From positions 2,046,001 through 2,110,000 of the forward strand of contig NZ_JBGCUS010000001.1 of NCBI RefSeq assembly GCF_041415945.1: 64,000 nt of DNA, read 5' to 3'. The position numbers were made by a program, and so were the translations under genes. Source of the stretch: Ancylobacter sp. IITR112. GTDB taxonomy: Bacteria > Pseudomonadota > Alphaproteobacteria > Rhizobiales > Xanthobacteraceae. The notes under the pieces are model-generated. The model made no database searches. It was not told the DNA's origin and saw nothing but the letters and a program-made list of their open reading frames with translations. Shown here piece after piece: positions 54,701 to 55,938 of this stretch. Each line of letters opens with the position of its first letter. Positions within the stretch are counted from its first letter, which is position 1.

Positions 54701-55938
54701 CCGGCGCGCTGGTGAAGGAGGGCAGCGGCACGCTGGTGCTCTCGGGCACCAGCACCTACACCGGCGGCACCCAGTTGAACGCCGGCACGCTCCAGGTCGC
54801 TACCGACTCGAATCTCGGCGGCACGGGCGGGCTCACTTTCAATGGCGGCACGCTGAAGACCACCGGCAGTTTCACCGCCGCCCGCAACCTGACCCTGACC
54901 GCCAACGGTACGATCACCCCCGACAGCGGCACAACGCTGACCGTGACCGGCGACAGCTCCGGCGCCGGGCAACTGATCATGAACGGCGCCGGCACGCTGG
55001 TGCTCTCCGGCACCAATGCGCACACCGGCGGCACGTCGGTGTCCACGGGCACGCTGCAGGTGGCGTCCGATGCCAATATCGGCGCGGCGTCCGGCGTGCT
55101 CACCCTCAACGCCGCCACGCTGGCGACGACGGGGACGTTCGCCGCCACACGCGATGTGACGCTAGCCGGCAACGGCACGTTCAACACCGCCGACTCGACG
55201 ACGCTGAGCCTCTCCGGCGTCATCTCCGGCTCCGCCGCCCTCATCAAGACCGGCAGCGGCACGCTCGCCCTTTCCGGCACCAACACTTTCACCGACGGCA
55301 CCACGGTGTCGGCCGGCACGCTGGCGCTGAGCGGCGGCGCCTCGCTGTCCGATAGCGCCCTGCTCTCCATTGCCGCGGACGCCAGCGTCACGCTCGGCGA
55401 TGACGAGACCGTCGGCTCGCTGGCCGGCGCCGGCAGCCTTTCGCTCGGCAGCAACACGCTCACCACCGGCGGAGACGCCAGCAGCAGCACCTTCTCCGGC
55501 GTCATCTCCGGCTCCGGCGGCCTGACCAAGACCGGCGCCGGCACGTTCACCCTCTCGGGCGCGAACAGCTACACGGGCGCCACGACGGTCTCCGCCGGCA
55601 CGCTGACGCTGACCGGCAGCGTCGGCGGCACGGTGCAGGTGGCCAATGGCGCCACGCTCGCGGGCGTGCAGGGTGCCGGCACGACCATGACCGGGCTGAC
55701 GCTCTCCTCGTCCAGCACGCTCGACGTGACGCTCGGCGCCCTCGCGGCCGGCGGGGTGTTCACCGTCAATGGCGATGTGACGCTGGACGGCACGCTGAAC
55801 GTGACGCAGGCGGCGGGCTTCGGCACCGGCGTCTATACCTTCATCAGCTATACCGGCGACCTCACCGACAACGGCATCGTTCTGACATCGCTCGGCGGCA
55901 CGCTCACCGGCACGGTGCAGACCTCGGTGCCGGGCTAG
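45754..55938 (+). CDS. giant autotransporter-type beta-repeat surface protein, first part up to an in-frame TAG
   Basis: A 3,394-codon frame from a TTG start (TTGGCTGGCTTG; other TTGs follow). Residues 1-33 form a signal peptide (LLKARAARLCAGVAALSMMG, cleavage near ARA). Residues about 34-430 are short GTGTxNxSGG-type beta units. From about 485 come arrays of ~88-residue PATR repeats: GxLTKTGTGTLxLSGxNTYTGGTTxxxGTLQVSADxNLGD. The mature part is dominated by Gly, Thr, Ser; I noticed no cysteine after the signal. Four ~245-codon modules with WNGxTT...TWTA..TNWTNG interrupt the arrays. The repeats predict a long beta-helical passenger secreted to the cell surface. The frame ends at TAG 55936-55938, inside the fourth module, but the same frame continues open to the window end, so this is probably one interrupted gene. 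Confidence 0.8.
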   Translation: MAGLLKARAARLCAGVAALSMMGQVGALDAARADTVTVTTQDAFTAAVDSAINSGQPDTIIANSQGEGGNGGPFVAGADWILPNPNYLLSITFDTTPFKIGTAAGDATLTLRSGASINIDTTSGSSDGRIEIGDGGTGTLNIDGGTLQVNLADSSTAPTTSVGRIWVGGGSSNTTGGTGFLNITSGELLYTASEGSLNYGGLAVGRGGGVTGTVNQSGGTVRFNSAGSLDLGTQGGTGTYNLTGNAVFSASQGGMTAYIGSRTSGAAGSGTASIGTLVVADNAQFSITTGNFTGGQLYVGDSKGVGTITQDGAGSQVTLSLQNPIRFGSDLSNYGTGGTGTYNLSAGTLNVGNVGGSAQIIFGASAGGTGTFNISGGSANIATTLVLASVAGSTGTVNMTGGTLTLSGSSYLSFGSGTGTFNLDGGTLVVGGTNGIRGAGTFNFGSGTLRVSSALTTSNAMVLKSGAAATIDTNGSTAALSGIVSGDGALAKTGDGTLTLSGTNTYTGGTTISGGTLSVSADNNLGDASGGLTLDDGTLATTADVTSARTVTLTGAGTFSSSASTTLILSGTISGDGGLTKAGDGTLSLTGANSYTGATTVSAGTLALSGGASLSDTASLTIEDGASVSLGDDETIGSLAGAGSLDLGSYILTSGGDDTDSTFSGDISGTGGLTKTGSGTLSLSGTNSYTGATTVSAGTLALSGGASLSDTASLTIDAGATVLLAANETVGSLAGAGTLSLGTSTLTAGGDNTDSTFSGDISGTGGLTKTGTGTLTLAGNSGSATGVLTIAAGTVEVTAFTATSVLVQSGGTLKGTGSIGTLSNSVVVSSGGTLQGTQGAGLDILRNLTLESGTQVNVTLGDVAVGGVFSVGNQLTLDGTLNVTEAAGFGTGVYNIFTYKGLLIDNGMEVSALSDGLSGTIQTSVPQKVNLVVDGVDATIRFWNGSTTESTDTVEGGAGTWTAGGTTNWTNGLGNIALAWNSGFAVFQGTAGTVTVDNSDGAVSAIGLQFVTSNYVVTGGALTLTGSTPAKIRVGDGTATGATTVATIASELAGSAGLEKTDYGTLILSGTNSYTGGTTFTAGTLQISADANLGDGSGGLTFNGGTLATTASFTSARTVALASTGTVNTADATTLTLSGVISGDGTLTKSGTGTLILSGANTFTGTMSVAAGSLELSGGAALADSARLAIETGATASLDADETLGSLTGTGTLALGSHALTLGGTDESFTFGGALSGTGSVTKTGTGTFTLAGTSGGTGPLNVTAGALNLTGSFAGGAVVSSGATLQGTGTLGGTAQVQNGGTLSGVQGDSFTLGGLVLSSGSTVDITLGTSAGVFDVAGDVTLDGTLDVTQAAGFGTGLYTIISYSGSLTNNGIELVPLTGGYVGEVQTSAPGQVNLLVDGTVSTIQFWNGNTTSASGTVAGGSGTWTAGNTTNWTNSTGTTAQAWNGGFALFEGAAGTVTIDTGAGAISPTGMQFVTSGYEVTGGALTLAGSTPVKIRVGSGAASDATLVTTISSAIVGTGGLEKTDYGTLILTGTNSYSGGTTLSTGTLQVSADANLGDAAGVLILNGGTLETTTSFTSARNVTLASTGALDPAAGTTLTLSGVISGTGALTKTGTGTLVLTGANTYTGVTTIAGGILQIGNGGTAGSLTGNIVNDATLIFDRSDSLTYAGAITGTGSLVKTGTGTLILSGSSDFSGGTTISAGRLEIGDGISGSLTGTIVNNAQLAVNVTGTTTFAGDISGTGSFEKTGSGDYILTGTNTFTGVTTVTEGRLIIGDGVSGSLTGDAVVAANMTLNFDRDDDFTYAGNITGRGEVGKLGSGTMILTGTSFAGALAIREGTVQIGDGGTTGDAGWIRLAYGTKVVFNRSDTFTFTGPIGTLGTLPTEPSVIQNGTGTLILAYPGNNDYGGGTGLYAGTIQVSRDTLLGNLSGGLFFNGGRLATTASFSTARALTFTGTGTLAPNSGTTLTATGNSSGAGKLVMGGAGTLILTGTNAHTGGTEVASGTLQVASDSNLGAATGVLTLSGGTLATTASFAATRDVALTGASTLNTATSTTLTLSGAISGSGTLTKTGAGTLALSGSNSSTAATTVSAGTLAVSGGNALSDTALLTIASGASVTLDADEAIGSLAGGGTFALGSASLTVGGDNSSTTFSGVISGSGGLTKTGTGTLTLSGANSYSGSTTVSAGTLVLTGSVGTVQVADGATLAGVQAAGTTMTGLTLSETSTLNVTLGTPAAGVVFTVNGDVTLDGTLNVTEAAGFGTGVYTFISYTGSLTNNGMDVTPLGGTLTGTLQTTVPGKVNLIVDGSDPTIQYWNGTTTSATGEVVGGDGTWTADSDETNWTNGLGTIARSWDGKFAIFAGTAGTVTVDTSAGAVNTTGMQFVTSGYVVSGGTITLADSGPTAIRVGTGVEAGASTVATISSTIAGSGGLEKTDYGTLILSGTNIYTGGTTVSTGTLSVGADANLGDAAGGLILAGGTLATTATFSSARAVSFSGASAIAPATGTTLTLSSAISGTGTLTSSGAGTLTLSGVVSGAGALAQTGTGTLILSGTNTYSGGTTISAGTLQVAADANLGAAGALTFTGGTLATTATFSSSRAITLTGNGSIAPASSTTLTLSGVVSGTGSLTKTGAGTLVLSGSNTYSGGTSVTGGTLQISSNANLGNTASSLTLSNATLTGTGTFTVARSVTLIGANTISAISGEVTLSGTISGTGGLNASAPGRLVLTGTNTYTGGTTASWGALRISSDANLGDVSGGITLAGGSLEVWGTFSSARAVALTSNSTINTNTGVTLTLTGVVSGSSQLTKRGNGTLVLTGANTLSGTINVSEGTLQVGDAANFGTSSLLVLSTGTLATTGTISTSRQVALNTHGTFDVAGGTTLTLSGQIWNGGTLIKTGTGTLVLTGASNTYYGGTTISAGTVQVSADRNLGEGGVLITFNGGTLATTATFSSSRAITLAGTGTINTAASTTLTLAGVISSTGALVKEGSGTLVLSGTSTYTGGTQLNAGTLQVATDSNLGGTGGLTFNGGTLKTTGSFTAARNLTLTANGTITPDSGTTLTVTGDSSGAGQLIMNGAGTLVLSGTNAHTGGTSVSTGTLQVASDANIGAASGVLTLNAATLATTGTFAATRDVTLAGNGTFNTADSTTLSLSGVISGSAALIKTGSGTLALSGTNTFTDGTTVSAGTLALSGGASLSDSALLSIAADASVTLGDDETVGSLAGAGSLSLGSNTLTTGGDASSSTFSGVISGSGGLTKTGAGTFTLSGANSYTGATTVSAGTLTLTGSVGGTVQVANGATLAGVQGAGTTMTGLTLSSSSTLDVTLGALAAGGVFTVNGDVTLDGTLNVTQAAGFGTGVYTFISYTGDLTDNGIVLTSLGGTLTGTVQTSVPG
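48241..48990 (+). repeat. spacer module copy 1 of the giant protein
   Basis: About 245 codons with GTLQGTQGAG, LDGTLNVTEAAGFGTGVYNI, QTSVPQKVNLVVDG, FWNGSTTES, TWTAGGTTNWTNGLGN, LQFVTSNYVVTGGALTL, AKIRVGDGT and GLEKTDYGTLILSGTNSYTG. It differs from the flanking PATR units. Confidence 0.8.
49651..50390 (+). repeat. spacer module copy 2 of the giant protein
   Basis: The same order of motifs as copy 1: GTLSGVQGDS, LDGTLDVTQAAGFGTGLYTI, QTSAPGQVNLLVDG, FWNGNTTSA, TWTAGNTTNWTNSTG, MQFVTSGYEVTGGALTL, GLEKTDYGTLILTGTNSYSG. The codon at the site of the later TAG is CAG (Gln). Confidence 0.8.
52374..53118 (+). repeat. spacer module copy 3 of the giant protein
   Basis: ATLAGVQAAG, LDGTLNVTEAAGFGTGVYTF, QTTVPGKVNLIVDGSDPTIQ, YWNGTTTSA, TWTADSDETNWTNGLGT, MQFVTSGYVVSGGTITL, GLEKTDYGTLILSGTNIYTG. 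The codon at the TAG site is AAG (Lys). Confidence 0.8.

What the first reader, a model, noticed from the sequence alone, without database searches (positions are those of the whole stretch)
55936..55938. Single in-frame amber codon splits an otherwise open 18-kb surface-protein frame
The frame is open from 45754 to 64000 except for this TAG. In parallel module copies the same codon is AAA/AAG-type Lys (VPGK, VPQK) or CAG (APGQ), so one base change (A or C to T) explains it, and the downstream codons continue the module without loss. Either the gene is a recent pseudogene, the protein is made as a truncated secreted form without a barrel, the codon is read through, or the base is a sequencing error in a highly repetitive region.
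Basis: seen in the sequence. Interest (0 to 1): 0.7.

Follow-up and report, generated by a model that had tools for sequence, protein, structure and literature searches.

The report
Stop codon in giant surface-protein gene
One stop codon cuts a very long gene for a repetitive outer-surface protein in an Ancylobacter bacterium in two; related species show no such stop, so this is most likely a recent, ordinary loss of the gene, though a sequencing slip cannot be ruled out.

Summary
The TAG at 55936-55938 is in the assembly and is the only internal stop in a frame that runs past the window end: 45754 to 74088 in window coordinates, 3394 codons before and 6049 after it. The gene is a giant type Va autotransporter: signal-like start, PATR repeats, and a C-terminal PF03797 barrel that lies after the stop. 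The genus is Ancylobacter (inferred). The order icd - autotransporter - IalB - SapC is kept in relatives. The frame is open throughout in 'Xanthobacteraceae 501b' (7724 codons) and over both contig pieces in A. polymorphus and A. vacuolatus. In a fourth relative the 5' part is gone and transposase genes lie there. The own genome shows no CUA anticodon in 46 tRNA matches and no PylS above cut-off. The barrel after the stop is constrained, and nothing else in 28 kb is broken, so the stop is very young. Best reading: a recent null allele of an adhesin-like gene. A base error is the main rival; functional read-through is unlikely but open.

The parts
45754..55938 (+). 5' ORF: TTG start, signal-peptide-like start (about 45754-45855, by eye), N-terminal domain of about 500 aa and PATR-rich passenger, ends at the TAG; 3394 aa
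   Evidence: N-terminus aligned from residue 1 with two relatives
55936..55938 (+). in-frame TAG at a linker-module junction, where the other five copies in the gene have a sense codon
55939..64000 (+). window part of the 3' frame; it continues to window coordinate 74088 (C1:2120088), 6049 codons in all, ending in an autotransporter barrel and terminal Phe
   Evidence: PATR; PF03797 E 7.7e-65
48535..48537 (+). matching junction codon in linker module 1 (sense)
49936..49938 (+). matching junction codon in linker module 2 (sense)
52660..52662 (+). matching junction codon in linker module 3 (sense); closest copy to the TAG module
44043..45419 (+). isocitrate dehydrogenase gene (icd), conserved upstream neighbour
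   Evidence: PF00180; 91-96% DNA identity upstream of the gene in G013, G019, G029

Best explanation
The locus encodes a giant type Va autotransporter, probably an adhesin or other surface fibre. A signal peptide sends it through Sec, a very long beta-helical PATR passenger is drawn out through the C-terminal barrel, and it stays on the surface. In this strain one substitution at a repeat junction made an amber codon 36% of the way along. Translation ends there, so the exported part has no barrel and should stay and be degraded in the periplasm, while anything restarted after the stop has no signal peptide. The allele is a young loss of function. Shown: the stop, the repeat and barrel homology, the open frames in relatives, the conserved locus, constraint on the barrel. 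Inferred: signal peptide, surface function, fate of the fragments, and that the base is biologically real.
For: One internal stop in 28.3 kb. Open frame of 7724 codons, barrel end included, in G019, and frames open to contig edges in G013 (6883 + 2661 codons) and G029 (4320 + 874), with icd, IalB and SapC at the same places. PF03797 barrel after the stop. Codons changed only in G000 in the barrel: 29 synonymous and 10 nonsynonymous, against 28 and 7 summed over four relatives, Fisher p 0.59; pairwise dN/dS with G000 0.16-0.20. No further stop or frameshift: neutral age bound about 0.0007-0.0026 substitutions per site, by assumed (recalled) indel:substitution ratios of 0.15-0.03, against dS 0.36-0.46 to the relatives. 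The ortholog in G014 has lost its 5' part, with transposase genes in its place. Splitting of PATR autotransporter genes by stops is reported for Brucella bma genes (PMC8111173, abstract and passages).
Against: No second assembly of this species was found, so the base rests on one consensus. An absence of secondary damage is also what a base error would give. dN/dS with G000 is above that among the relatives (0.16-0.20 against 0.09-0.15), not significant in the odd-one-out count. The TAG module has no clean one-to-one partner in relatives, so the comparison there is with sister modules. No expression data.
Confidence: 0.62

Rival explanations
1. The TAG is a consensus base error and the gene is intact in the living strain.
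For: Single substitution, nothing else broken; gene is repetitive, with a 391-nt exact repeat elsewhere in it; the 12 junctions found in relatives all have sense codons.
Against: The local sequence is distinct: a 51-mer centred on the TAG differs at 8 or more places from any other place in the gene and the two paralog stretches L012/L013, a 151-mer at 21; the 3 kb around it has no exact match over 49 nt elsewhere in the gene, so sister-copy reads should not blur it. No long homopolymer at the site. The 391-nt repeat was resolved inside a 4.56-Mb contig, which suggests long reads (inference; the sequencing method is not known).
Confidence: 0.22
2. The TAG is read through at a useful level, so that few full-length molecules and many truncated ones are made.
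For: The frame after the stop is kept and the barrel is constrained; basal amber misreading by near-cognate tRNAs exists in bacteria (recalled).
Against: No CUA anticodon in the 46 tRNA matches, all examined; PylS only a sub-cut-off hit, as in 12 of 14 control genomes (one more is over it); no unusual fold after the TAG (z 0.42); no stop at the 12 junctions found in relatives.
Confidence: 0.08
3. Two proteins are made on purpose: a barrel-less secreted passenger and a separate C-terminal protein starting at the GTG right after the TAG.
For: A GTG follows the TAG directly, which could allow re-initiation.
Against: The second product has no signal-like start (VNLVVDG...) and so could not place its barrel. 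The GTG is the Val codon of the VNL motif that belongs to the module itself. A promoter scan found nothing near it, but found nothing upstream of the whole gene either, so that scan says little.
Confidence: 0.03

Closest known systems
Brucella Bma type Va autotransporters (BmaA, BmaB, BmaC), PMC8111173 (abstract and passages read)
   Same: Type Va architecture with PATR repeats; in many strains premature stops split the locus so that no ORF has both signal peptide and barrel; authors call these pseudogenes.
   Different: Different genus and locus; the gene here is about 9.4 thousand codons with one stop only; sequence relation to Bma proteins was not tested.
Bartonella henselae BadA (trimeric autotransporter), PMC8859334 (abstract start and passages read)
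   Same: Giant repetitive adhesin gene broken by premature stops in some strains; a passage places an ialB homologue close to badA.
   Different: Trimeric adhesin with its own anchor; the two badA breaks described in the passages are frameshifts, not a nonsense codon; homology was not tested.
Ancylobacter orthologs of this gene (501b; A. polymorphus DSM 2457; A. vacuolatus DSM 1277)
   Same: Same locus, related N-terminal domain and barrel, PATR array.
   Different: No stop in the frames seen (two of three are split over contigs); repeat number and order differ.

Membership tests
Type Va (classical) autotransporter | C-terminal PF03797 barrel ending in an aromatic residue | tested here: met
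   PF03797 E 7.7e-65, model 1-254 of 255; last residue Phe; lies after the stop
Type Va (classical) autotransporter | Passenger with PATR / beta-strand repeats | tested here: met
   PF12951 in 25 stretches before the stop, 31 in the window part after it, 32 in a later piece that overlaps the second by 1 kb; TIGR02601
Type Va (classical) autotransporter | N-terminal Sec signal peptide | tested here: inconclusive
   Basic, then hydrophobic, then small-residue start seen by eye and aligned in two relatives; no signal-peptide predictor was available
Type Va (classical) autotransporter | Signal, passenger and barrel in one uninterrupted ORF | tested here: not met
   TAG at 55936; met in the G019 ortholog
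Autotransporter pseudogene as defined in PMC8111173 | Locus split so that no ORF holds both signal peptide and barrel | tested here: met
   definition read in a passage; the signal peptide itself is by eye
Stop-codon recoding (suppressor tRNA or pyrrolysine) | tRNA with CUA anticodon, or PylS | tested here: not met
   0 of 46 tRNA matches with CUA; no PylS above cut-off

The most novel reading that the evidence does not exclude
The amber codon is kept as a leak valve: ordinary tRNAs misread it now and then, so that most translation ends in a discarded fragment and a few 9.4-thousand-residue molecules reach the surface, with another autotransporter of the genus (A. vacuolatus, L117), which has an amber codon with 18 codons left to its end, as a second case.
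Probability: 0.05. Interest if true: 0.7.

Novelty: new member of a known kind. Interest (0 to 1): 0.27.

Why it matters
It is a clear example that a very long repetitive surface protein can be switched off by one change while the rest of a 28-kb frame stays fresh, and a warning that such a gene can be annotated as two separate ORFs, the second with a false start. If the stop proved to be read through, it would be a notable way of rationing a giant surface protein. As the evidence stands it is an ordinary young null allele or a base error.

Tried and rejected
Suppressor tRNA and pyrrolysine: no support. Read-through structure after the stop: z 0.42; three sister junctions gave -1.51, 0.70 and -1.26 (their 100-nt windows start at the junction codon or one base after it should, not exactly like the first). 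Internal promoter: none near the stop, but none before the gene start either, so uninformative.

Same-species protein in the protein database with an uninterrupted form: three searches listed none near-identical; best listed identity 50% (120 of 861 listed), 68% (25 listed) and 71% (24 listed). Lengths outside 0.55-1.75 of the query are not seen, only the candidates sharing most words were scored (970, 904 and 2265), and one entry from the own contig (the 4.56-Mb one, source masked) appeared as a paralog while the giant itself did not; so this is no proof of absence. Named genome scan: 8 loci, none recognised as the window's own genome (own records may be left out). Plasmid collection: in the 20 of 65 records listed, the matches fall on or around the icd stretch, not on the autotransporter.

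Literature, one library: 'Ancylobacter' with 'autotransporter' 0 papers; 'autotransporter-associated beta strand repeat' with 'stop codon' 0 papers; readthrough/amber/autotransporter 2 papers, listing only, neither looked relevant. Searches listed 12 of 476 and 12 of 47 papers; of these I opened two.

CTAG is rare here (10 seen, 44.6 expected by a second-order model in the window; 2 in the gene, one of them at the stop). This fits a young change but is weak and was not used in the confidence. A megablast self-comparison printed no rows and was not used.

Full report
What is there. The codon at 55936-55938 is TAG. The frame that it interrupts begins at a TTG at 45754; the first residues look like a Sec signal peptide (by eye) and align from residue 1 with two relatives, 77% and 74% identical over 500 residues. 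The window lies at G000:C1:2046001-2110000. Fetching the next stretch of the contig shows that the same frame stays open to C1:2120088, which is window coordinate 74088. In all there are 3394 codons before the TAG and 6049 after it, with no other internal stop.

What it encodes. The pieces were scanned apart. PATR repeats (PF12951) occur in 25 stretches before the stop and 31 in the window part after it, and in 32 stretches of a later piece that overlaps the second by 1 kb. The last 345 residues are an autotransporter barrel (PF03797, E 7.7e-65) ending in Phe. When the 3695-residue piece was scanned whole, Pfam listed PATR only; the barrel showed when its 345 residues were scanned alone. Thus the barrel that would export the passenger lies wholly after the stop. 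Two paralogs with uninterrupted frames lie elsewhere in the genome, 4157 and 3026 residues.

The site. The stop sits at a junction in a linker module (...G-x-VNL...WNG). The gene has six such modules; five have a sense codon at x. One regular expression run over this gene, three relatives and two own paralogs found 22 junctions (6 here, 4 in G019, 8 in G013, 4 in paralog L012; none in the G029 pieces and paralog L013), of which 21 are sense (14 Gln, 3 Glu, 2 Lys, 2 Ala) and 1 is the stop. The position is thus variable, and the module reads on in frame after the stop. The TAG module has no clean one-to-one partner in relatives: G000 gene bases 1982-9038 are collinear with G013 at 81.5% identity, but the stop, at gene base 10183, lies after that block and matches sister modules at about 75% at best.

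Relatives. The genus search covered 30 genomes including the own one; 10 of 30 had some match, and matches over residues 1-500 were found in 3 of 30 (G000, G019, G029); G013 matched in separate pieces, 1-135 and 391-500. In G019 the open frame is 7724 codons from stop to stop, barrel end included. In G013 it runs 6883 codons to a contig end and 2661 from another contig edge to the barrel, no stop in either. In G029 it is 4320 + 874 codons over two contigs, no stop. The neighbours icd, IalB and SapC are at the same places in all three. In G014 (unnamed) the same locus keeps icd, IalB, SapC and the barrel, but the 5' part has gone: genes with transposase domains (PF01527, PF00665; IS3-type is my label) and short out-of-frame PATR remnants lie between, leaving an 857-codon ORF with the barrel. 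So the locus is broken in another way in a second species.

How old is the stop. In the barrel, counting codons where one species differs from four that agree, G000 has 29 synonymous and 10 nonsynonymous changes; the other four together have 28 and 7 (Fisher p 0.59). Pairwise dN/dS is 0.16-0.20 with G000 and 0.09-0.15 among the others: constrained, perhaps a little less so. Of 84,987 possible single-base changes in the gene's sense codons 1114 (1.31%) give a stop. With frameshifts at assumed (recalled) indel:substitution ratios of 0.03-0.15, the absence of any second lesion bounds neutral age at about 0.0026-0.0007 substitutions per site (95%), far below dS 0.36-0.46 to the relatives. The stop is very young, or the gene is still in use, or the base is wrong.

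Is it an error? The bases around the TAG are not repeated closely: the nearest other place in the gene and the two paralog stretches has 5 mismatches in 31, 8 in 51, 11 in 101 and 21 in 151, and the longest exact match elsewhere in the gene of the 3 kb around it is 49 nt. Mixing with sister modules is therefore unlikely. The gene has a 391-nt exact repeat at another place, solved inside a 4.56-Mb contig. A plain base error remains possible; no reads are held.

Is it read through? All 46 tRNA matches of the own genome were examined; none has a CUA anticodon. The pyrrolysine synthetase model gave one hit far below its cut-off (21.4 against 178 bits), as it does below cut-off in 12 of 14 control genomes. 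RNA folding after the TAG is not unusual. Another autotransporter in A. vacuolatus has a TAG with 18 codons left to its end where its 501b counterpart reads on; it was the one row with a stop in the listed part, whose list was cut. Over five genomes 0 of 74 PF03797 stretches hold a stop (the A. vacuolatus stop lies past the matched domain). Two cases in different genes and species do not make a pattern.

Place among known things. PATR autotransporter genes split by premature stops are described in Brucella (PMC8111173; abstract and passages), and giant trimeric adhesin genes with premature stops in Bartonella (PMC8859334; abstract start and passages). The finding is a further example of that kind, in a genus for which no paper with the word autotransporter was found in the library searched.

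Noticed in passing
L011:11093-11854 and 11923-12681 (window coordinates about 74093-75681, outside the window): An IalB-domain protein ORF starts 4 nt after the giant gene's stop, followed by a SapC-domain protein; this order is kept in G013, G014, G019 and G029. A passage on Bartonella also places an ialB homologue close to the giant adhesin gene badA (PMC8859334).
   Followed up: partly
L130 (G014:C1:2946001-2958000): The orthologous locus in another genome of the genus has lost its 5' part, with transposase genes and out-of-frame PATR remnants in its place.
   Followed up: yes
L117:2868-3875 (G029, A. vacuolatus): A different autotransporter has an in-frame TAG with 18 codons left to its end; the 501b counterpart (L118) reads on.
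   Followed up: partly
window 1-64000: CTAG is strongly depleted: 10 seen against 44.6 expected from a second-order model.
   Followed up: no
L011:3466-11271 (-): An antisense open frame of 2601 aa lies over the 3' part of the gene; long antisense frames also occur in the window part. Probably a by-product of GC-rich, repetitive codons.
   Followed up: no
window 45754-47253: The N-terminal 500-residue domain also heads proteins of about 1900-2500 aa with a PF03797 barrel, e.g. in Devosia chinhatensis, so the Ancylobacter gene may have grown by repeat expansion.
   Followed up: no
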